41,250 nt of DNA. It comes from Zychaea mexicana (Eukaryota > Mucoromycota > Mucoromycetes > Mucorales > Lichtheimiaceae). The stretch spans positions 1-41,250 of the forward strand of contig NW_026516883.1 of the NCBI RefSeq assembly GCF_025766255.1. The letters are read 5' to 3'. Of this stretch, positions 1-31,889 are shown piece by piece. Under the pieces are notes generated by a model. It worked only from the letters and a program-made list of their open reading frames with translations. It made no database searches and was not told where the DNA came from. Both the position numbers and the translations under genes were made by a program. Position 1 is the first letter of the stretch, and every line of letters begins with the position of its first letter.

Positions 1-3000
1 ATTTGGATGTCATGCTTGGTGCGTTTCAAGTCATGAACCAATGCCAGGTGGGATCACAATGATAGGGTAGAGATATGGATCATAACCTGTTATTTTAGAA
101 AGAGAAGTGCTACGCGTACGAGTTTTTTTTCTTACGCGTACGAGTTTTTCTGAGCGGGTTTTTAAAGTGGTTGTGTTGTGAAACCTTGTATAGCCAATCC
201 AATTGCCGGTCTTACACGTACGAGTTTTTTGCTAAAGGAACTGAACAGCATATGCGTACGAGTTTTTGTCTATCCATCAATCTTCCGTTTTTTTGGATGG
301 CCTTGTCAAAATAAATAGCTATTGTCATACTTCTTGATATACAAACTGCTCATCAAATGGGCGCAATGGATTTATTTACGCTGTTCTTTTCGAGATCTTA
401 CACGTCTGTTCTGCCACCATACAGTAATGGCATATATAAGTTTGCATTCGCTTCTTTTCTTTAAGTTCTTGGCCTTTTCCCCAATATTTGATGCCACACC
501 AAGCGATATCAGGATTCTAATCAATCAAGCAATTCACTTGTTCATGTGGAGGAGTTTTCTACCGAGTTCATATAGTTAGCAATCATTTATATAAAAAGAA
601 CTTCGGGCAGCGCTCTTTTACGCGTACGAGTTTTTTTCTATAGTGGTTCCACGCGTAAAACAGCCCTTTAACATAAGCTACTGTGATAAGAAGTCGGTGT
701 TTATGTATAAAAAGGTAAAATCCAAGAGAAAATATAAGAGAATTAAAACGCTAATTCATGTGAGAGTTAATATAAGGTGGATAACAGTAATTGTGTCTGA
801 CAGAGAAAAATAGAAATGAAATGGAGGAGAGATAAACAAATGGGTTGTTGCAACAAGAAAAAATCGGAAAAAAGGTAATGAAAGCTGTCAGATACTATTT
901 ATACGTTTCTGGAAATACAATGGAACCAAACTGTGCACTTTTCCACATGCGAAGTCGTGCATAAGATGTGAGATCTTCAACGCCTTCTATCTGCATTAGA
1001 TCCCATTCATTGAGATTTTTGCTCCTTCTACCTTCTTCCAGATCTTCAGCTATAAGTAAAATGGCTGTTTCCGGCGCAAGGATCATTTGGATGTAAGACA
1101 TGTATGTAAGGCGCAATCTTTCAATGTTGTGGTCTTGGTCAAGTTTTTCCATAAACATATCAGCAAGTGTTTCTGTAATGACAACACTTCCACGAGATCC
1201 GTAGTATCCAGGCTATGATTATGTTGCTTGTATGTTAGATTTTATCCACAAGTGATATACACAGCAAAATGATTGGGAAAGTAAACGTACCCGTAGTTCG
1301 GAGACGCGACCCAACATGACGCCAATATTTTGCGCATTTTGAGCACCATTCTTCTTGATTGATTTTATGGTGAGGTCTTTGTAAAAGCTTGGTCGTCTAC
1401 CGTAGAGGATGTCTTCGAGCTGGCTTTTGAAATTATGAATGCGCTTTGGGAGTGCGACAAAGTCGATGGATAACGGATAGAATTCCTCAGTAGCAATGGC
1501 TCTATAAACATATTCTATACGATGCGTATAGCAGAATAGCTGTTGTTCTTGCTTTTTAAGACCCAACGTAGAAAAGAACTGTAATTGTCTACGTTCTGCT
1601 GCTGATAGGAACCCGGTGGTCTTGACCCGCCATTTGCGTGTTTCCTCAAAATTCGCAGATATTTGTAATTTCTTGTCAAGCTTCGCGACTGCGCGTGGGT
1701 ATGGAGTTGCCAACATTTCCTTGCAAAAAAAGCATTCTATCACTATATTGACATGCTCCGTTAGTATCGATATTTATATTCAATACCATATAAAGATAAA
1801 AACGTATAGAAAAGGACACATACTGCTTCCAACGCGTCCGCATATAGTAGGCTCGAGTACTGCTTGTAGTTCATTCAGCTCGTCAATGTCTAACCGAGCC
1901 TTGTACCTGTCATTGACGCTAGCCAACTTGTAGCATGCTACGACTGTTTTGTCTGAATGACAAAGGTCTTCAGGCGGGAACTCGCTTGTAACTTTGTCTT
2001 GAACTATTTGTACTTGTTTCTGCAGGTTGTCGATCTGTGCAAGAAAATAGGAATCGTTGTGTTCAACGGTGGCAACAGTGTAAAAGTGAGCGCCCGAATC
2101 TGCAGTACTGAATATTTTTGCTTGTAGAACGTAATGGGCATCATCGAACCGGAGGTTGTACGGAAAGTGGGTGTAGGACAGTCCTCCTTTGCCTGCCGGA
2201 TCCTGGGTCTGTGTTGCACCCAATACAAGAAATGGCGAATATCTTGTTATGGCGTTGTGTTGATCAGCATCTTCGTTACACGATTCATGTGCGCATTTTG
2301 ATGTCGTTGGTGCCAGGATATGGTGAGCGTAAAACTGGTCCGAGAATTGAACAGGATCTCTTGTTGTTATGCATTCATGGATACAATCGATGTCTAACAA
2401 GAGGTTCTTTGATACGGATTCGTGGCCAGCAGGGCACCGCTTGACCTTTGTATACATTGGGAAAAAGTTCTCTCGAAGACGATTGGAAAGATTCCCCAAG
2501 ATAAAATGCTTTAAAAATTTATGCGGGCTGTCCATGCTCTGGGAGGAGTATTCCGGGCTGCACCAAGCAAAGTTGCGTGCAGTAAGTGCTGCGTTGGACC
2601 TTCCAATCTCGTGATTTTCTTGATGATGGTGATGTGTACAAAGCAGTAGAATATCGGTCGGGTTATACACACCACAGCGTATAGGCGAGACAGGAGTAAG
2701 GTCAATATACGGCAGCACAGAGTTCCATAGCATCTCCATCGGTGCATCAATGAAGCATGAGTTGTGTGAATTTGGCTCTAAGTATGTTACGTAAGGCACT
2801 GCGTTGTACATGTATACATACAAATATTTGTTTAATAAAGTTGCATATGTATGTACAAAATTTCTTTTTAATGAGTCAGCCATTTACCTTCTTTTAGAGA
2901 AGACCTGTTTCGAGGCGCATTTTTGTGTTGATTGGGTGGAACAGTAATTGAAGGAATGATAGCATCAACGGTTGAATTTGAGCTCAATGGTCTGTAGAAA

Positions 3001-6000
3001 AGAAGCAAGTATTATGTATTAGCTATATGAGCATCGACTTTACAGATGACACGTAAACAAACCAAGCATGCGAGATATACTTACTTTTTACGATGGTTTG
3101 TAGCAGAGGTACCAGCATCCAAAGGTCGTTTCCTGCTAGACAGTTTATCTTCGTTCTTTTCGTTCGACTTGTTTACTTTCTTGATTATAGACATGCGTGT
3201 CTTCTTCGCTCGATCCTTTGGTCGACCTCTTGCTTTGACATTTTTGGGGAGGTAGACCTTGTCGATACCAGGTTCCACTTTTGCGGTTGATATCGCCTTT
3301 TCGATGGTTCCCATGAAAGCATTTAACCGCTGATGATCTTGGATGGAAGTGAGCTTTTCTTGCAAACTATGTATCAGATTGGTCGCTCTGTTTGATAATT
3401 CAGCGCCAATAAGCTCCACAGAGTCGAATACTGCAAAAATGTAATATAGTGTTACTATCAGTGCTGTAACGTATTTAAACATATTGATGAATAAAAATTA
3501 TCTTTGAGATTACTATACCTTCTTCATCAAGGTGCCAAAAGGGATGAATGCTTCCAATTGTTAATTTAGTATTAGCTTGCATGGTATGGCGGCATGGGAT
3601 CTTGTAGTTCTGCTTGACCATACAGCAGCAATCAGCGTCCATATCGAGAGAGTTGATGTTCGCATATTCGTTTCGAAGAAGGATTAAACCACAATGAGAT
3701 ATTCTTCTTGCCACTTTTTCGAAGTAGCCGTTAGTGGCAGCGTCACCAGCAATGATTACTGGTCTGTTGATCATTTCTTTGTAAAAAGTACCGGCTTCAG
3801 CATCCATCTATAATGTATAATTTATACAATCATATACAGTATCTTATATTAGCTCTTATCATAGGCAGCATATATGTGATATATGCAGAAAGATAACAGA
3901 AGTCAATATCGTACTTACAGATGCGCTGCGATTTTCATGTAATTTCTCAAACAAATAAAGCAGAGATCCTGGCTTGCCTAGTCTGCTTTTTAGACTTCTA
4001 TGGGCACTTTCCACTCTCTGAGTAGTACGATTCCCAAAATGCGCGTACTTTCGCACCAGGGGCCAGCCCAACGTTCTTTGTTAACCAAAGTCCTATATTA
4101 TGTAAATCATTTGCATATGAGTTGATGTCTTAAAGGCAGTGGTCATGATACAAGGAATGTTGAGAAAAGGCAAAACAACTTACTCGTCTAAATATTGCCC
4201 AAGCATTTCACACGCTAATGACTTTCTTACGTGGGTGCGATACTCAGTAACTGCTGCATCAAACTCTTCTTCGCTTCTGCTCCAGAGTAAGTTCTTTATA
4301 ATCACATCCATGTAGGCTTGATCCGACAGCTTTTTTCCTTGCTTTTTGCTTGAGAATTTGCCCGTATATCTGTCCATAAAGTTCTTCTGAACGTGCCACG
4401 CGCAAAGGATCGTGTCGCTCTCCAGAAATACCATTGTAATGCTGTTGATGAGTTGGTTATCTTGGTCGGTTACAAAAAGCTTCGGCTCGCTAGCAATTAA
4501 TGTGGGCCATACAACTTCACGCAGCTTTTGGGCCATCCAAAGGTACGACGGTTCCTTCTCGTTTGCCATCAACACCGAAGCAACAACAAATGTGCGGAGT
4601 CGAGTAGTTCCCAGGTTACTGACACCAACAATGTGGACAAACGGCATGTTGTGAAGATTGGTCTTGTATGTGGAGTCAATAAGCACCACTTCTGAAAATC
4701 GCCTTGCCATTACAATCGAGTCCGGGTGCACTACAAAAAGTGCCTTGAGAGTGCCTGTTGACGCCGTCACATCATAATGAATGATATAATTTTCGGCTTT
4801 CAGAAAGTCCAGCAACGGAGTAAATTCGCTAGATGCTCCTAAAGTACCAGTGGTCTTGTAATAAAAGTTTTGCACATCCTTGGTCGTCATTACAAATCCA
4901 TCATGCTTTTTATCAATGATATGCACAACTTCAGGTGCTGGGACGTTACGGCTCATAGATGATAGGGTTCGGACTACGGGTTCGGTGGGTTTACGATGCT
5001 GATGATACACCTTGGACAGAGCCTTGACGTCTTGGACAAGTGGATGGTTGTGGTGCACCACGTCACTGGAGTCTTCAGTTGGGACAGTGGTCTTGCCTTT
5101 CTTGATACTGTATTTCTCTCCAGAGTGGATACGTACATATCGAACTTCCCATTGTGGTTCTTGGCCCGGGTCTTGGGACTTCTTTGGCAGCGAGACGGTT
5201 ACACGCCAACAACAGCCTGTCTTCTTGGTACTCTTGTTGCGCTGACGTTGATCGCCTCGTTCATCGATATACTCCCCTTTACACGTGCACTGACAGTAAA
5301 CCGTATCTCTAAGACCGTTGATGCTGAAATTGACAGCAAAACCATGTGTCTTGGCGTACATTTGAACGTCCACCTGGATTTTCTCGTAGCTGAAATATCT
5401 TCTGCCGATAAGCTCACTCATTCGGATTTGATAGTATTTTGGAAGTATAAAGAAGTGATAGAATAAAAGAAAAGAAAGAAGAGGGCAATGTAAATATTCA
5501 AACGACTCGACAGTATATATAACGTCTATTCCCCACGGCCCGGCGGAGAGAAACTTTTAACATTTTCTTAAAACACATGCTTCTGAATATAATATCAAGT
5601 AGCAAACCATGTGACATTTATTAGTCATATAGTAAAGTGTCACGGTGCGTTAAATATATGATTCAGCAAACAGAGTACACAACATAAAGTAAGTTATGTA
5701 GTGTGCTATTCTATAATATTGTTACTGTAATGAAGTAGTAAAGGAGTACTTAAACTTACTATTACTTCCACTAAATATGTTAGATCAAAATCTTTTTACA
5801 TTTGAAGAGCATATAGTACTCGAAAGTACAGTAAGCAACTATCTTATGAGACTTCCACTTCCTGTGGAGCTGTTGAACGGTTTTCAAATAACAAATAACC
5901 CACTGTAACCAGAATAGAGAAAACTCGTACGCGTAAGCAGATAACTGTCAAAACACATCCCAGCTACTTATGATTCACGTGGAACCAGAATAGAAAAAAC

Positions 6001-7380
6001 TCGTACGCGTAAGCAGATAACTGTCAAAACACATCCCAGCTACTTATGATTCACGTGGAACCAGAATAGAAAAAACTCGTACGCGTAAGCAGACAGCTGT
6101 CAAAACATATCCCAGCTACTTATGATTCACGTGGAACCAGAATAGAAAAAACTCGTACGCGTAAGCAGACAGCTGTCAAAACATATCCCAGCTACTTGTG
6201 ATCCACGTGGAACCAGAATAGGAAAAACTCGTACGCGTAAGCAGATAACTGTCAAAACATATCCCAGCTACTTATGATCCACGTGGAACCAGGAAAGAAA
6301 AAACTCGTACGCGTAAGCAGAAAGCTGTCAAAACATATCCCAGCTTCTTATGATCCACGTGGAACCAGGATAGGAAAAACTCGTACGTGTAAGCAGATTA
6401 CTGTCAAAACTTGTCCCCGCTACTTATGATTTACGTGAAACAGGTTAAAAAAACTCGTACGCGTAAGCAGAAAGCTGTCAAAACATATCCCAGCTTCTTA
6501 TGATCCACGTGGAACCAGGATAGAAGAAACTCGTACGTGTAAGCAGATTACTGTCAAAACTTGTCCCCGCTACTTATGATTTACGTGGAAACAGGTTAAA
6601 AAAACTCGTAAGCGTAAAAGAGCGCTGCCCGAAGTACTTTTTTTTATAAATGATTGCTAACTATATGAACTCGGTAGAAAACTCCTCCACATGAACAAGT
6701 GAATTGCTTGATTGATTAGAATCCTGATATCGCTTGGTGTGGCATCAAATATTGGGGAAAAGGCCAAGAACTTAAAGAAAAGAAGCGAATGCAAACTTAT
6801 ATATGCCATTACTGTATGGTGGCAGAACAGACGTGTAAGATCTCGAAAAGAACAGCGTAAATAAATCCATTGCGCCCATTTGATGAGCAGTTTGTATATC
6901 AAGAAGTATGACAATAGCTATTTATTTTGACAAGGCCATCCAAAAAAACGGAAGATTGATGGATAGACAAAAACTCGTACGCATATGCTGTTCAGTTCCT
7001 TTAGCAAAAAACTCGTACGTGTAAGACCGGCAATTGGATTGGCTATACAAGGTTTCACAACACAACCACTTTAAAAACCCGCTCAGAAAAACTCGTACGC
7101 GTAAGAAAAAAAACTCGTACGCGTAGCACTTCTCTTTAGAAAATTGTCATGGAAGCAGCGAAAGCATGCAAGGAAACAATTCGACGAGACGGCAATGACG
7201 GCGACATGTGCCTGCCATCATTTGGCACCCGAATCCGACACGCCGAAGACCAGGTAAGTATCGATTAAAATCTATATTATCCTTCTAACGTCGCAATTTT
7301 AGATCATGACCCTGATGCAGAATGTGGATCCTGCGAGACTTGCTCGCGCTGCCCGAAAGCTTGACTTTTCGAAGTGTTGA
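1..7380 (+). CDS. 3' end of an unidentified host gene, split by MULE-1
   Basis: Three exons read in one frame: before 1 to 47, 7140-7253 and 7303-7380 (stop TGA). The first is cut by the window edge. The junctions are CAG|GTGGGA at 47/48, TTTAG|AAA at 7139/7140, CAG|GTAAGT at 7253/7254 and TTTTAG|ATC at 7302/7303. The visible C-terminal 78 residues are charged and helical-looking and contain a stretch reading ACKETIRRDGNDGDMC. I do not recognise the family. Without the transposon the first intron would be 51 bp (48-98); with it the intron is about 7.1 kb. The codon phase is kept across the insertion, so the gene may still be expressed if the long intron is removed. Alternatively, splicing to the old acceptor at 98 would read into the transposon end and change the C-terminus. 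Confidence 0.55.
102..637 (+). repeat. Left terminal inverted repeat of MULE-1
   Basis: This 536-bp arm matches the reverse complement of 6598-7134 with only a few differences, mainly near the inner end (for example around 594-602). It carries several copies of a box reading TTACGCGTACGAGTTTTT or close variants, near 112, 134, 210, 252 and 619. The box core CGTACGCGTA is nearly self-complementary and is a good candidate for a transposase binding site. An 85-codon reading frame (322-579) lies in the arm and recurs in the other arm; I treat it as incidental. Confidence 0.95.
895..5421 (-). CDS. MULE transposase fused to USP-like cysteine peptidase and RTC4-like domain
   Basis: Exons: 5421-4184, 4075-3919, 3807-3519, 3430-3085, 2991-2888, 2798-1824, 1742-1291, 1212-895. 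They total 3,879 nt, or 1,292 residues, in one frame with GT-AG introns of 78-111 nt. Domain order: FAR1-like zinc region (residues 10-130; Cys 43-47, KTGC 67-70, HHNH 123-126); MULE core with Asp249 (LIDSTYKTN), Asp319 (VTDQDN), C340-x2-H343 and probable Glu435 (RVES); SWIM finger C525-x-C527...C537-x-H539; basic linker with GRPKDRAKK; peptidase with Cys726 (NSCFIDAP), His949 (GAHFYTV), Asp968 as third-residue candidate and Cys/His pairs for a zinc ribbon; RTC4-like domain with C1040-x2-C1043, C1107-x2-H1110 and a PGYYGSRG segment early in exon 8. Transposition role is from the family; peptidase and RTC4 roles are inferred. The first splice acceptor (4076) is the least certain junction. Confidence 0.85.
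5513..5522 (-). promoter_or_regulatory. TATA box of the MULE-1 gene
   Basis: TATATATA lies at 5514-5521, about 92 bp upstream of the ATG at 5421. On the coding strand the leader between them is rich in pyrimidines (runs of CTTCTTTCTTTTC), as is common just upstream of fungal starts. The start context reads CCGAATGAG. Confidence 0.5.
5523..5917. other. MULE-1 internal spacer without a gene
   Basis: This AT-rich stretch lies between the promoter and the 76-bp array. I see no conserved frame, terminal motif or repeat in it. It presumably holds upstream regulatory sequence of the element. Confidence 0.5.
5918..6612. repeat. 76-bp subterminal tandem array of MULE-1 (about ten boxes)
   Basis: The box CTCGTACGCGTAAG starts at 5924, 6000, 6076, 6152, 6228, 6304, 6380, 6454, 6530 and 6605, so the period is 76 bp with two slightly short units (74 and 75). 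Each unit also holds a CACGTG-type box followed by GAACCAG and a segment reading CTGTCAAAAC. The CGTACGCGTA core is the same one found in the terminal repeats. Later units alternate two variants, CGTACGCG and CGTACGTG. The likely role is multiple transposase binding sites, which is an inference from shared sequence with the ends. Confidence 0.92.
6598..7134 (-). repeat. Right terminal inverted repeat of MULE-1
   Basis: This is the reverse complement of the left arm. It starts inside the last unit of the 76-bp array and ends with GCACTTCTC at 7126-7134, next to the target duplication. The pyrimidine-rich end plus the duplicated TTTAG rebuilds a usable 3' splice site for the host gene. Confidence 0.95.
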
Positions 7381-27656: not shown

Positions 27657-28368
27657 CTGTACGCTTTACCTTGACGATACCTTATATTTCGCGTAAAACA
27701 GAGCTCCTTCAATCAAATATTCCAAGTGGATTTGAAGTGAACCTGCGTACGTCCTCCGAGGATCAGTCGACACCTTTTTCAGTCGTTCATTCCCGTTATT
27801 CATTCCCTTTAGACTACTTAAGGCGCATGGCCCGATTCATGATGTATCCTCTCTTCATATTATTTCTGTCCAGGTATTAAATTCCCTATGAGCTCTACCT
27901 TCGTCATTTGCCGAGAGCCACGACAATTTGACCACTGTACGATAGGAGTATCGCCCCGAAGCATCTCTTTGCAAGTAATGAAATTTTAAGCGTTTTCATT
28001 TTTATGTGTTCCAAAATCCTTCATAAAGAGCAGCATTGAAGTTGAATATCTTTCATCCGGTATCAGTGATGACGATATCGTCTATTTTTCTAAATATTGC
28101 TATACTAAAACAAGTCCGCATTACGTTAGTTGAGCTGTAGTCGCACGATACGAGCTATATGTAGAATACACGTTCGCAAACCTTACCCCGTGTACTAACT
28201 TCCTTTGCAGAAAGAACCTTATCAAGGAAATTTTCATTCAAACATAATGCGTTATAGTTTTTTTCTTTGGATTACTTGTTATATAAGAAAGTCATAATAA
28301 TTCAAACCCAATATATCCGTATTCAGTAAGTGCCGCTGCCTGATGGCAAACCGAAATAATGCTCCAGG
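27657..28368. other. Unassigned stretch left of the GCM-type MULE
   Basis: No gene, RNA or repeat was recognised. It may hold upstream exons of the Gly/Cys-rich protein. Confidence 0.45.
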
Positions 28369-28377
28369 GGTGTCACT

Positions 28378-28419
28378 AAAAATGGTGCACCGCTGAAATG
28401 GTGCACCGAGATTTGTGAC
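28378..28419 (+). repeat. Left terminal inverted repeat of the GCM-MULE
   Basis: It begins AAAAATGGTGCACCGC and ends TTTGTGAC. The palindromic GTGCAC core occurs twice. Differs from the right end at two T/C positions. Confidence 0.9.
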
Positions 28420-28428
28420 TCGGAAAAT

Positions 28429-30648
28429 ATGCTTTTTTCTCTTCGGTTCCTGAAAGAACAAAATCTACTGTTCAAAATACAACAATGTCCAAATACATTA
28501 CCTTTTTTCGAAGAAGATTTGTTAAGGACTCCTATGAAGAGGAGGCTCCCGCCTATTTTGACTCCAAAAGCGAAAAGTACTATTTTCGACAAAGCATCTA
28601 GTCCTTCACGACACTCAATCAAACTTACTCAAAACTTTTCGATTTTTGACAGGTACGTAAAACTGAATTTGGACATTGGATGGTCTATGCGCAAGGTTTA
28701 TGGTCCTCGAAAACAAAAGCACAATATCCATCGCTACAAGAAGAAATGCAATGGTTTTGTCCTCTGCACTAGAGAGGCCTGCAAATTCTATGGCAAACAT
28801 TTGCGCCCGCGCTGCGATTTTGAACAAATTCATAAACAATGCCAGCTTGGGTGTATGCGCTGCGGAGGCGATTTAGAGCACGTTGACACTTGTAAAACAG
28901 AGGCGTTCTACTATTTCGACGGCAGTAAATGCACTGTTAAGCAGATCGGCACACATGACCACGAACGATATACTGCGAAGCATCTATCGGAAGTAGAGAA
29001 GGAAACACTGGCAGAGAGAATTCGAAGTGATCCAATGGTGACACCCGAGGCAGCTATTCATGGCAACAACAAGCGAACTGGGGAAATCGTTGAATCGATC
29101 ATTAAGATCAACCCAATTCTTGGCACGAGGGACAGAGCCGAGTATGAAATCAACAAAGTACGCGAGGAACGAGATATTCCAAGAAAAGGTGAATTTCTCG
29201 GCGACTTGGGCAAGATTATGAATGAGTTCCCTGGGTACTTCCTCCACGCCCACGTTCTACCAGGCTCATTCTTTTTGGCGTATCGGTCACCGACTCTTAA
29301 AGAATATGTTCACTTTCAAGATTTTCCGGCTGTTACCGATGTCACTTTCAAGGCATTTGAGAAAGGATACTATCTCTGCTCAACAGTGATCTATGTTCCT
29401 GAACTGAAAAAACACACAGTGATCTTCCAAGCTGTCCTGGATGGCCTTTCACAAACCTACTTTGCCCAATACTTTTTTGCATTCTTCACAGAGTACAACG
29501 TTAAGTTTGAAGGCAACAATTCCTTTCTCGGTATGATGATGGATTTCTCTTTGGCACAAAGGAATGGTTTTCTGCAAGCCTACACACAGTACACCAGAAA
29601 GGATGACGGCATGCGGTTCCTAAAAGGGTGCTATATGCACTGGATGCAATCCATTCAACGTCTCAACAGCAATTACAGCATCGTTCTACCCGAATCCAGC
29701 GAACGATTTCGTGAACTGAACTGCATCATTCGGACAACTGAAGATGCTGATGAATTTTGCCGTAGTTGTAAGGAACTGGTGACAAATTTCAAGCATACTT
29801 TCAAATGGCTCAAATGGTGGCTACAACCATCTATAAGCAGCATGATTTTTCGACATCGCTCCAGCATGAATGACGCCCTCCGCAGCCACCCTTATCGTAC
29901 CACAAATGCAGTGGAAGCGTTCCATAGAGATTTATACCGAGATACTGTACACAACTTGCCTATATCTCTAGCGCTTCCACAAACGTTGAATTATATCCGC
30001 TTAGATGAATTGACACTGAAAAACTATGAAGAAAATGCGGTGCCTGCTTCATACAACAGAGCACCACGACAAACTCGAAAACGATCAAAAAAAAACTTTG
30101 ACAATGATGGACGTGCTCCGGATGTTTTCGGTAAACTTGTTAATGATGTTACCACCGATCAACAACCACTGGACCATTTTCTTTATGACGACCAAGCTGA
30201 AAGCAAGACACTATCACAAGCAGAAAAGACCTCCAACAAGAGCACCATGCCCTTCGCCAAAAGACTTTCGAAAGAGGATATCAAAGCAGTATCACAGCAA
30301 GATATCTTGAATAAGATTGATGAACGCGCCCTGCACCTTTTGGATATGAAAGTTGATCCGTTCACGTTGAAAGAAATTGAGACAATGGCTGAGAACTTGG
30401 AGACAGGGTCAGACGAAATGATGCAATATATCATGGGTGGCGAGATGAAGAATGAAAAGAAGAGGCAAGAAGTGAAGGAGAAAAATGCAATGAGCAAGAC
30501 CAAAGAAAAGATGAAGACGGAGAAGAAAACAGAGAAAACGATGGACAAGAAAACTGAAAACAACCAGAAGAAAAGAAAACAACCGGAAAATCAAGCTGAG
30601 GACTTATGGCCGAGTAACAGGAAAAGTCTTCGAAGAGAACCATGGTAA
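28429..30648 (+). CDS. GCM-type MULE transposase
   Basis: An uninterrupted 739-residue frame; a second ATG at 28534 (MKRRLPPILT) is an alternative start, since the first lies only 10 bp inside the left terminal repeat. A WRKY-GCM1-like zinc domain spans about residues 105-180 (Cys107, 113, 118, 138, 142, 145, 155; GTHDHERY with His176 and His178). The DDE core follows: Asp304 (VTDVTFKAF), Asp372 (MMMDFSLA), C401-x2-H404 (GCYMHWMQS) and probable Glu496 (TTNAVEAFH). The last 150 residues are charged and repeat Lys/Glu. The frame stops at 30646, but a 57-nt GT-AG intron at 30645-30701 would carry it in phase into an OTU-like domain. All apparent catalytic acids are present. Confidence 0.88.
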   Translation: MLFSLRFLKEQNLLFKIQQCPNTLPFFEEDLLRTPMKRRLPPILTPKAKSTIFDKASSPSRHSIKLTQNFSIFDRYVKLNLDIGWSMRKVYGPRKQKHNIHRYKKKCNGFVLCTREACKFYGKHLRPRCDFEQIHKQCQLGCMRCGGDLEHVDTCKTEAFYYFDGSKCTVKQIGTHDHERYTAKHLSEVEKETLAERIRSDPMVTPEAAIHGNNKRTGEIVESIIKINPILGTRDRAEYEINKVREERDIPRKGEFLGDLGKIMNEFPGYFLHAHVLPGSFFLAYRSPTLKEYVHFQDFPAVTDVTFKAFEKGYYLCSTVIYVPELKKHTVIFQAVLDGLSQTYFAQYFFAFFTEYNVKFEGNNSFLGMMMDFSLAQRNGFLQAYTQYTRKDDGMRFLKGCYMHWMQSIQRLNSNYSIVLPESSERFRELNCIIRTTEDADEFCRSCKELVTNFKHTFKWLKWWLQPSISSMIFRHRSSMNDALRSHPYRTTNAVEAFHRDLYRDTVHNLPISLALPQTLNYIRLDELTLKNYEENAVPASYNRAPRQTRKRSKKNFDNDGRAPDVFGKLVNDVTTDQQPLDHFLYDDQAESKTLSQAEKTSNKSTMPFAKRLSKEDIKAVSQQDILNKIDERALHLLDMKVDPFTLKEIETMAENLETGSDEMMQYIMGGEMKNEKKRQEVKEKNAMSKTKEKMKTEKKTEKTMDKKTENNQKKRKQPENQAEDLWPSNRKSLRREPW

Positions 30649-31380
30649 TTTTAATAGATTATTGGGAGCGATTGACAGTATAACTGAATTCAATTCAATA
30701 GTTTCGTCCATCGAGAGATCCCGCTCGATTGCTCGTTTGGAATTAAGCAAATCAAAGCTGACGGATGGTGTTAATATCGTGCCCTTGCTCTCCAACTTCA
30801 TGGTGACCAAGATCAATATATCAAGGTCAAACAAGCAATTCTTGATCAGCTTTTTGCGAACTATGATTTCTATCGCGATACTCTATAGAACGGACGTGAG
30901 GTCATAATGCAAAATGCGATCAAACGAATGGAATATGGTATCACACCAGAAACAGCACAATACCAGAAGTACACTTGCAGTTCGGATTATTGGTTCAATG
31001 CGATAATAGATGCCCAAATTGCTGCAGATGCATATACTGTGCCGATTGCAGTATATGATGATCGCTTGGATTGGAACAGTGTTTAATACTTGCCTTTTAC
31101 TATCCCAAAGGGAACCAATCGACAACCGCAGCCAATAACTCTTTCTCTTAGCTCAAATCACTTTAACGCAATTGACCTCGTTCCATCCAGAGCACTACAT
31201 AGGGAGTGGCCACCCGTCAGACCTTATCATGAGATAGGTTGGCATCGTCTTGGACTTAAGGCAGATTACAAGACTACATGGCGGTATCTTCATAGAAGAC
31301 GCTTGACCGAAAACGAGAAACAATTTTTCATAGACATTGACACAAGTGTCATATATAAACAGCAGAAAAGAATTTATTAA
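30649..31380 (+). pseudogene. Decayed OTU-like cysteine peptidase domain, in frame with the transposase
   Basis: In the same reading frame as the transposase, translation shows ADGWC (Cys codon 30769-30771), a stop, YRALALQLHGDQDQYIKV, a long stretch with SDYWFNAIIDAQIAAD, and LSLSSNHFNAIDL (His codon 31159-31161). These match the Cys box (usually DGNC-x-YRALA) and the His box (NHFN) of OTU deubiquitinases in order and spacing. Stops within the domain are TAA 30772, TAG 30886 and TAA 31084, with no frameshift over about 700 bp. Further stops at 30646-30687 would be removed by the candidate intron 30645-30701. The domain ends at TAA 31378-31380. As it stands the domain cannot be translated whole, so this copy is judged inactive. 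Confidence 0.75.
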
Positions 31381-31570
31381 ATATTACTAAATATCATAAA
31401 TTTCGGTTTACACAGTGCCAGAGCTAAAGTGAAGTTTGGAAGAGAAATTAACGTATGGGATGCATATACGAACGGTAGAAACCGCAGGAGAGAAAGGAAT
31501 GATGGGTGCACTTTTCTGGCACTTTGTCGGTGCACTTTTACTGTGCGCCTCGAACCACCGTCACATCGCT
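31381..31570. other. 3' spacer of the GCM-MULE
   Basis: Non-coding sequence between the OTU remnant and the right terminal repeat. It contains two extra GGTGCAC boxes. Confidence 0.55.
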
Positions 31571-31612
31571 GTCACAAGTCTCGGTGCACCATTTCGGCGG
31601 TGCACCATTTTT
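31571..31612 (-). repeat. Right terminal inverted repeat of the GCM-MULE
   Basis: Reverse complement of the left end with two substitutions. It is the boundary between the element and the satellite-rich region. Confidence 0.9.
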
Positions 31613-31889
31613 CGTGTCTCTCATGCTCCAGCTGCCAACACCCGCACCTCACGAAAAGACATGCCATCGACTGTCTCAACATGCATTCCCGCTCCCGTGT
31701 CAACCGCATACATCACAGCGACCCTTTATCCTTCATTCTCAACCAGCTCCCTTAGTCGCCACCAAAATCAGCCGCACCATCAACCACCTCATAACCACTT
31801 GGACGATAATCTGCACCAACCTGGCAGAACTCGACGCTCTACAACACCCGGACTCCGACCTATAACAATACTATGACGCCAACCCCCCT
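31613..31889. other. Cytosine-rich spacer
   Basis: C-rich, A/C-biased sequence between the transposon end and the satellite region. Open frames on both strands look like composition effects; no gene is supported. Confidence 0.45.

What the first reader, a model, noticed from the sequence alone, without database searches (positions are those of the whole stretch)
895..5421. One transposon protein joins a MULE transposase, a USP-like peptidase and an RTC4-like domain
Eight exons with canonical splice sites join in one frame (3,879 nt, 1,292 residues) with no stop. The C-terminal half carries a Cys box (NSCFIDAP, Cys726), a His box (GAHFYTV, His949) and Cys/His pairs like a USP zinc ribbon, then a C-x2-C and C-x2-H RTC4-like domain. 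Known plant MULEs (the Kaonashi group) carry a Ulp1-type peptidase; this is a different family plus a domain named after a telomere-capping gene. I know of no standard description of this architecture. A plausible role is stripping ubiquitin or SUMO from the transposase or host chromatin, or self-processing.
Basis: partly seen in the sequence, partly recalled or inferred. Interest (0 to 1): 0.92.

Follow-up and report, generated by a model that had tools for sequence, protein, structure and literature searches.

The report
Jumping gene with built-in ubiquitin remover
A jumping gene in a mould genome encodes one predicted protein that joins a DNA-moving enzyme, a domain that likely strips the protein tag ubiquitin, and a domain shared with a yeast telomere-linked protein, and sister elements in the same genome carry a different likely ubiquitin-stripping domain in the same slot, which suggests these parasites need to fight ubiquitin tagging in order to move.

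Summary
The architecture holds; one splice site does not. The eight-exon, 1,292-residue frame is reproducible, but its exon 2 acceptor is probably wrong: sisters C24 and C9 have one base more in exon 2 and a better acceptor 17 nt upstream. The window copy is thus probably frameshifted, while C24 is open throughout with seven introns. Pfam finds MULE (E 5.8e-21) and RTC4 (E 6.6e-18). The element (102-7134) has about 540-bp TIRs and an 8-bp TSD; 10 of 11 elements tested have 8-9-bp TSDs. The genome is very likely Zychaea mexicana. The middle domain resembles a USP: a ten-sequence profile matches only USP7 in the PDB (24 entries of one protein, best E 0.013, best single stretch 0.39), colinear from Cys box to His box. 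Both AlphaFold runs failed. New: the slot is interchangeable. Other elements carry an OTU-like domain there (OTUD5, E 1e-5), and both domains follow two different transposase families, one of them at 28.4-31.6 kb of this window. The RTC4 block shares an intron with a host-like gene. The swap of two deubiquitinase families points to ubiquitin as the target. Activity is unproven.

The parts
102..7134 (.). Whole Mutator-like element, 7.0 kb, ends GAGAAGTGCTACGCG inverted
   Evidence: inverted arms 92-597/6639-7144, 99% complementary; exact ends
94..101 (.). Target site duplication, left copy TTTAGAAA
7135..7142 (.). Target site duplication, right copy TTTAGAAA
102..640 (.). Left terminal inverted repeat
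   Evidence: 535 of 544 aligned columns identical to the right end (window 100-640 against 6598-7138); 43 matches genome-wide
6598..7134 (.). Right terminal inverted repeat
5907..6617 (.). Tandem array, 9.4 copies of 76 bp upstream of the gene, with ten sites of the 13-mer ACTCGTACGCGTA (one mismatch allowed); in all 14 sites on the right and 5 inverted sites on the left of the element, none elsewhere in the window
4184..5421 (-). Exon 1: start, N-terminal region and MULE DDE domain (MULE at 4381-4689)
3919..4075 (-).
3519..3807 (-). Exon 3, SWIM-like C-x-C...C-x-H (residues 525-539, 3586-3630)
   Evidence: SWIM label from motif, no Pfam call
3085..3430 (-). Exon 4, basic linker
2888..2991 (-). 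Exon 5, linker
1824..2798 (-). Exon 6, USP-like domain: Cys726, zinc-type C833/H837 and C880/C885, His949, Asp968
1291..1742 (-). Exon 7, C1040-x2-C1043 and C1107-x2-H1110, start of the RTC4 domain
895..1212 (-). Exon 8, most of the RTC4-like domain (PF14474) and stop
28365..31625 (+). Second transposon in the window: 55-nt inverted ends (87% complementary), GCM-type transposase ORF 28360-30648, and a decayed OTU-like domain at about 30741-31190 (three in-frame stops)

Best explanation
The minus-strand gene at 895-5421 lies inside a Mutator-like transposon (102-7134) whose predicted spliced gene joins a MULE transposase, a divergent USP-like domain and an RTC4 domain, and its protein would likely work as a transposase that carries its own deubiquitinase and removes ubiquitin from the transposase complex at the element's ends. 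Shown: the MULE and RTC4 domains, an open joined frame in sister copy C24, weak but colinear profile kinship with USP7 that aligns the Cys and His boxes, shared introns, TIRs and TSDs, many relatives, and an OTU-like domain in the same slot of sister elements. Inferred: the window copy itself is probably frameshifted in exon 2; intact copies make the protein; its Cys/His site cleaves ubiquitin; and the substrate is the transposase complex (protection from degradation) rather than chromatin. Also inferred: the protein is held at the repeated 13-mer of the ends, and the RTC4 block, probably captured from a host gene, tethers the complex to a nuclear partner.
For: Domains; C24 keeps 7 of 7 introns without a stop, C266 at 37% identity keeps 4 of 7. 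USP kinship: profile A8 of 10 transposon sequences lists 24 PDB sequences at E<=10, all constructs of USP7, best E 0.013, aligned from Cys box to GGHY box; Pfam UCH E 0.0073 on the cut P0003 domain, 2 of 10 members matched. Cys at position 726 in 13 of 14 genome loci aligned, His at 949 in 11 of 12. Slot swap: the OTU-like profile hits OTUD5 at E 1e-5. 30 of 50 OTU-like loci (23 MULE, 7 GCM-type) and 10 of 17 USP-like loci (8 MULE, 2 GCM-type) have a transposase hit within 4.5 kb upstream on the same strand; about 0.008 per locus expected by chance (full GCM list adds none). 23 of 36 RTC4 hits have an OTU-like (14) or USP-like (9) hit upstream. Omega in the USP-like part 0.28 (C9), 0.29 (C151), 0.29 (C238), 0.16 (C61). 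Element ends.
Against: Both AlphaFold models are too poor to read (mean pLDDT 37.8 and 32.0). The window's own domain and a first nine-sequence profile find no USP. The 24 USP7 matches are one protein, with best single-stretch E 0.39. A profile-profile test was not significant (E 0.13), and hmmsearch on host USP ORFs did no better than reversed decoys. The window copy is probably frameshifted. The database model of C24 (P0001) begins inside the USP-like domain and splices exon 7 otherwise. C9 has Arg at 949, C137 Tyr at 726. 20 of 50 OTU-like, 7 of 17 USP-like and 12 of 36 RTC4 loci show no partner in the lists. Omega for C24 is 0.55 in the USP-like part, from three changes. Nothing shows expression, DNA binding or a ubiquitin substrate.
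Confidence: 0.47

Rival explanations
1. Anti-silencing: the deubiquitinase would act on host chromatin (for example ubiquitylated histones) at the element, guided by the repeated 13-mer, and open the element for expression, as sequence-specific VANC proteins of plant VANDAL elements do.
For: In the window the 13-mer sites are confined to the element and inverted between its ends; VANC proteins recognise short motifs in noncoding parts of related elements, and some (KIU) carry a Ulp1 domain (PMC13317346, passages).
Against: No chromatin-binding domain was recognised by Pfam, and the role of RTC4 is unknown; the domain sits in the transposase itself; no histone data.
Confidence: 0.22
2. Self-processing or SUMO-type peptidase: the cysteine peptidase would cut the fusion protein or remove SUMO, not ubiquitin.
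For: Ulp1-type peptidases are the known partners of plant MULEs (PMC13317346); a long basic linker precedes the domain.
Against: Replacement by an OTU-like domain and kinship to USP7 both point to deubiquitinases; Peptidase_C48 has four matching stretches in the genome, none on this contig.
Confidence: 0.13
3. Captured passenger: the USP-like and RTC4 blocks are transduplicated host fragments without function, as in many Pack-MULEs.
For: The RTC4 block shares a phase-0 intron just before PGYYG with a host-like RTC4 gene on C201; MULEs often carry gene fragments; several copies are decayed and the window copy is probably frameshifted.
Against: dN/dS well below 1 in both blocks for C9 and C151, and in the USP-like block for C238 and C61; the order is kept in C266 and C69, whose USP-like exons are 36-38% identical, and USP-like + RTC4 in Circinella minor P0007 (weak RTC4 match); OTU-like and USP-like domains both sit behind transposases far more often than chance.
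Confidence: 0.1
4. Two genes: the transposase and the USP-RTC4 part are separate transcription units that the splice model joins by accident.
For: The database model for C24 starts inside exon 6.
Against: That model lacks the Cys box; the seven introns are shared by C24 and four by C266; the database protein P0003 runs from a transposase tail into a USP-like domain with its Cys box, and P0005 from the same tail (38% over 123 residues to the window's second transposase) into a USP-like domain without it.
Confidence: 0.08

Closest known systems
Plant non-TIR MULEs with Ulp1 (Kaonashi, KIU; VANDAL/VANC)
   Same: MULE carrying a captured cysteine peptidase of a ubiquitin-like system; strong conservation reported in eudicots (PMC13317346, passages)
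   Different: Peptidase is Ulp1 (SUMO), in one of three genes of the element; here USP-like and in the transposase frame, with TIRs of about 540 bp and an RTC4 block
MuDR-6_HM, a cnidarian MULE with an Ovarian Tumour gene
   Same: MULE with an OTU motif (table of PMC6446971, passages), like the OTU-bearing sister elements here
   Different: No USP and no RTC4 in the table rows shown; Mucoromycota groups 4 and 5 there list SWIM or nothing
Helitrons with VTD or OTU deubiquitinases
   Same: Transposon-encoded deubiquitinases in which different DUB classes replace each other (PMC9741609, abstract and other passages)
   Different: Rolling-circle elements and a different DUB family; no MULE or RTC4 in the passages seen
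USP7 and the USP/C19 family
   Same: Cys box and His box in the same order, colinear profile match
   Different: Very divergent, below the Pfam cut-off, fused to a transposase
Fungal RTC4 proteins
   Same: PF14474 domain, preceding C-x2-C and C-x2-H, same intron before PGYYG
   Different: The host-like gene L051 shows no transposase domain and no significant peptidase domain in the two ORFs scanned; RTC4 is named after a yeast telomere-capping screen (recalled; also in PMC9370660, passages)

Membership tests
Mutator-like elements (MULE) | MULE DDE transposase domain | tested here: met
   PF10551 E 5.8e-21; Asp249, Asp319, Glu435 candidates (DDE roles by motif)
Mutator-like elements (MULE) | TIRs and 8-11 bp TSD | tested here: met
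   about 540-bp TIRs; 8-bp TSD here; 10 of 11 elements tested, this one included, have a perfect 8-9 bp TSD, C9 none
USP / peptidase C19 | sequence profile match | tested here: inconclusive
   UCH E 0.0073 on one relative, below cut-off; A8 profile to USP7 E 0.013, 24 sequences of one protein; window copy alone no hit
USP / peptidase C19 | Cys box, zinc-type pairs and His box in order | tested here: met
USP / peptidase C19 | papain-like USP fold | tested here: inconclusive
   two AlphaFold models unusable
USP / peptidase C19 | ubiquitin hydrolase activity | not testable with these tools
   needs an assay
RTC4-like domain proteins | PF14474 above cut-off | tested here: met
   65.5 bits against 23.7
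OTU (sister elements) | OTU profile match | tested here: met
   four-sequence profile to OTUD5 E 1e-5, best stretch 9e-4; Pfam OTU E 0.023, below cut-off, for the window remnant. Against: no Pfam hit for four sister pieces and two window pieces; PF02338 genome search found two places, neither in these copies
Kaonashi / KIU | Ulp1 (C48) peptidase | tested here: not met
   no C48 hit in the protein; four C48 stretches in the genome, none on this contig
VTD deubiquitinases | Asp-x-His catalytic motif (PMC9741609, passage) | tested here: not met
   His box is D-S-G-A-H-F, no Asp-x-His

The most novel reading that the evidence does not exclude
Mucoralean transposons run a plug-in deubiquitinase slot: at least two transposase families (MULE and a GCM-type one) have each combined with USP-like and OTU-like domains, and some add a captured RTC4 module, because escaping host ubiquitin tagging of the transposase complex is a general need for DNA transposition in these fungi.
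Probability: 0.42. Interest if true: 0.9.

Novelty: new variant of a known kind. Interest (0 to 1): 0.79.

Why it matters
Transposon-borne deubiquitinases are known from Helitrons, and SUMO-type peptidases from plant MULEs. A USP-like domain inside a MULE transposase, exchangeable with an OTU-like domain and followed by a captured RTC4 block, was not found in the open-access papers searched (listings, with passages of four papers read). If the activity is real, ubiquitin tagging becomes a testable host barrier to DNA transposition. The USP/OTU swap is a natural experiment that separates ubiquitin from SUMO as the target. It also gives the obscure RTC4 domain a new context, and may help explain RTC4 expansions such as that of a rust fungus (PMC9370660, passages; inference).

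Tried and rejected
Pfam on the window's USP-like exon: nothing. phmmer of that exon against the PDB: nothing; a nine-sequence profile: two dynein chance hits; the cut P0003 domain alone: three chance hits. A ten-sequence profile with more divergent members found USP7; it was the fourth PDB try for this domain, so its E-value should be read with that in mind. Protein database search with residues 700-1292: 3,758 candidates, none significant; with the exon-6 ORF, two Zychaea proteins; with a profile, seven, five of them new. Two AlphaFold jobs gave no usable model, so no fold search was made. hhalign against stitched host USP exons gave only the Cys box at E 0.13; column shuffles scored higher on average (22.1 against 17.9) and were erratic. 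hmmsearch on host ORFs was no better than reversed decoys. The search for related loci on viral contigs was not possible with that alignment. A first splice alignment with too strict donors misplaced introns and one script crashed; one search replaces both. The C69 splice alignment is poor (17 stops) and is not used for introns. A telomere role for RTC4 was left open: only its name supports it.
Full report
Source. The window is contig C136 of a 50.3-Mb assembly in 305 contigs. Two database proteins named Zychaea mexicana lie on contigs of 627,728 and 162,554 bases, the exact lengths of C24 and C9 of this assembly, so the genome is very likely Zychaea mexicana, Mucorales.

Gene model. Other acceptor choices also leave the frame open (1,300, 1,298 and 1,290 residues). 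A protein-to-genome alignment that allows introns recovered the seven introns in the window and, in the 99% copy on C24, seven introns at the same residues and phases with no stop. But in C24 and C9 intron 1 is 91 nt, not 108: it ends at an ATAG 17 nt upstream, and exon 2 is one base longer there than in the window. The window's exon 2 acceptor is therefore probably a coincidence that keeps the frame, and this copy is probably frameshifted in exon 2. C24 is the copy to trust. In the 37% copy on C266 the introns after 412 (phase 2), 465 (phase 0), about 562 (phase 1) and 1187 (phase 0) are kept and one more appears after 240. The linker before exon 6 and the 6/7 junction are badly placed there, and the five stops fall in those two places.

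Domains. Pfam calls MULE at 245-347, RTC4 at 1151-1287 and ZSWIM1-3 RNaseH-like. The DDE candidates are Asp249, Asp319 and Glu435, and a SWIM-like C-x-C...C-x-H lies at 525-539 (roles by motif). The USP-like part has Cys726, His949, Asp968 and zinc-type pairs C833/H837 and C880/C885.

The USP question. Alone, the window's domain matches nothing; a first profile and the P0003 domain alone also failed. After adding divergent copies from this genome (C192, C289, C258, C266) and database proteins, the ten-sequence profile A8 lists 24 distinct PDB sequences at E<=10. All 24 are constructs of one protein, USP7; best E 0.013 for the whole sequence and 0.39 for the best single stretch. The alignment runs from the USP7 Cys box (GATCYMNSLLQTL) to its His box (SGDNHGGHY) with the transposon Cys and His boxes opposite them. 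Pfam gives UCH at E 0.0073 for the cut P0003 domain (0.022 for the whole protein) and matches two of ten members. In tblastn alignments Cys stands at position 726 in 13 of 14 genome loci (Tyr in C137) and His at 949 in 11 of 12 (Arg in C9). By eye C289 has both, P0003 has both, and P0004-P0007 have the His; P0004, P0005, P0006 and P0007 as modelled lack the Cys-box part. I take this as fair, not final, evidence for a USP-like cysteine peptidase. Two AlphaFold jobs with six-row alignments gave mean pLDDT 37.8 and 32.0 and cannot be used.

The element. The arms are 99% complementary over 506 nt and extend to about 540 nt, 535 of 544 aligned columns identical. The element runs from 102 to 7134 with an 8-bp TSD. 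Of eleven elements tested, the window's included, six have a perfect 9-bp and four a perfect 8-bp TSD; C9 has none, its flanks being mirror images. The left TIR has 43 matches in the genome (40 of 49 candidates scored). From their places I pair three long elements with the gene (C136, C24, C9), one of 5.5 kb (C261) and eleven short ones of about 1.5-2 kb. In two of the short ones, C41 and C23, one end is 99% and the other 88-89% identical to the window's TIR. A 76-bp unit is repeated 9.4 times upstream of the gene. The 13-mer ACTCGTACGCGTA (one mismatch allowed) occurs 14 times towards the right end of the element and 5 times inverted at the left, and nowhere else in the window.

Relatives and the exchangeable slot. 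USP-like hits form 17 loci (25 rows merged), 36 RTC4 hits are listed, and OTU-like hits form 50 loci (60 rows merged). The C268 copy carries MULE, then an OTU-like domain (DGWCGFRTLS...NHWEPV), then RTC4. Of 33 diverged OTU-like loci (about 28-44% identical to the query), 20 have a MULE hit and 7 a GCM-type transposase hit within 4.5 kb upstream on the same strand, and 6 have neither; of the 17 closer ones, 3 have a MULE hit and 14 neither. Together that is 30 of 50; for USP-like loci it is 10 of 17 (8 MULE, 2 GCM-type). Chance expects about 0.008 per locus, and the full GCM-type list adds none. Only 150 of 222 MULE candidates were scored, so loci without a partner are not proof of absence. 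Of 36 RTC4 hits, 14 follow an OTU-like and 9 a USP-like hit, 1 only a MULE hit and 12 none. The OTU label rests on a four-sequence profile matching OTUD5 at E 1e-5 and Pfam OTU at E 0.023; the other OTU-like pieces scanned show no Pfam OTU hit, and the genome search with PF02338 missed these copies.

The second element in the window. At 28365-31625 a 762-residue ORF with a GCM-type zinc domain (PF03615, E 8.4e-6) is followed by a decayed OTU-like domain between 55-nt inverted ends. A relative of its transposase on C258 (39%) is followed by a USP-like domain, and a short match on C137 likewise. It also shares its tail with Circinella umbellata P0005 (38% over 123 residues), which ends in the USP-like domain. 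So both peptidase types occur behind both transposases. BLASTP finds no real similarity between the two transposases (best E 0.009 over 24 residues).

RTC4. A gene on C201 (L051) has the same C-x2-C, C-x2-H and RTC4 order without a transposase hit or a significant peptidase hit in the two ORFs scanned, and a phase-0 intron directly before PGYYG, as in exons 7/8 of the transposon and in C266. Capture of a host gene with its intron is the simplest reading (inference). Circinella minor P0007 also joins the USP-like part to RTC4 (weak, 19.1 bits against a cut-off of 23.7).

Selection. Between the window and C9, omega is 0.28 (MULE), 0.28 (USP-like) and 0.14 (RTC4); for C151, 0.29 (USP-like) and 0.23 (RTC4); for C238, 0.29 (MULE and USP-like); for C61, 0.16 (USP-like). 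C24 differs at few sites (omega 0.52 MULE, 0.55 USP-like, 0.09 RTC4) and C266 is saturated. C9, C238 and C61 contain stops. For the near copies the script kept only codons in stretches of at least 50% local identity, which lowers omega somewhat.

Mechanism. Two deubiquitinase families that occupy the same place behind two transposases most simply mean selection for ubiquitin removal. [quoted passage not shown] acting on chromatin is the main rival. All of this is inference until activity is measured.

Prior art. PMC6446971 (passages and part of its table) lists an OTU motif for MuDR-6_HM and nothing like USP or RTC4 in the rows shown. PMC13317346 (passages) describes KIU. PMC9370660 (passages) reports 45 RTC4 proteins in Puccinia novopanici. 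Searches for RTC4-like, RTC4 domain or PF14474 found no paper, and the combination searches (titles and abstract starts seen) listed none describing this architecture; most subscription journals are not covered.

Noticed in passing
window 28360-31630: A second transposon with a GCM-type transposase (PF03615) and a decayed OTU-like domain, 55-nt inverted ends.
   Followed up: partly
C9:135361-142010 (L071, L072): The C9 copy lacks a TSD; its 16-bp flanks are exact reverse complements of each other, as if the element sat in or made a palindrome.
   Followed up: no
C4, C14, C23, C41, C46, C63, C67, C90, C168, C252: Ten apparently non-autonomous elements of about 1.9-2 kb share these TIRs; in C41 and C23 one end is 99% and the other 88-89% identical to the window's, a mosaic; contents not read.
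   Followed up: partly
C241:157596-161694 and 194431-198530: Two mirrored pairs of RTC4-bearing copies, apparently an inverted segmental duplication.
   Followed up: no
P0001, P0002 (C24, C9): Database gene models for the sister copies start in the middle of the USP-like domain and splice exon 7 differently, so the fusion is hidden in public annotation.
   Followed up: yes
window exon 2, about 3919-4092: The window copy is one base shorter than C24 and C9 in exon 2, so it is probably a frameshifted copy.
   Followed up: yes
L051 (C201:426562-429927): Host-like RTC4 gene with the same zinc pairs and intron as the transposon block.
   Followed up: partly
literature, PMC9370660: RTC4 proteins are expanded in a rust fungus (45 copies); they might be transposon-borne too.
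   Followed up: no
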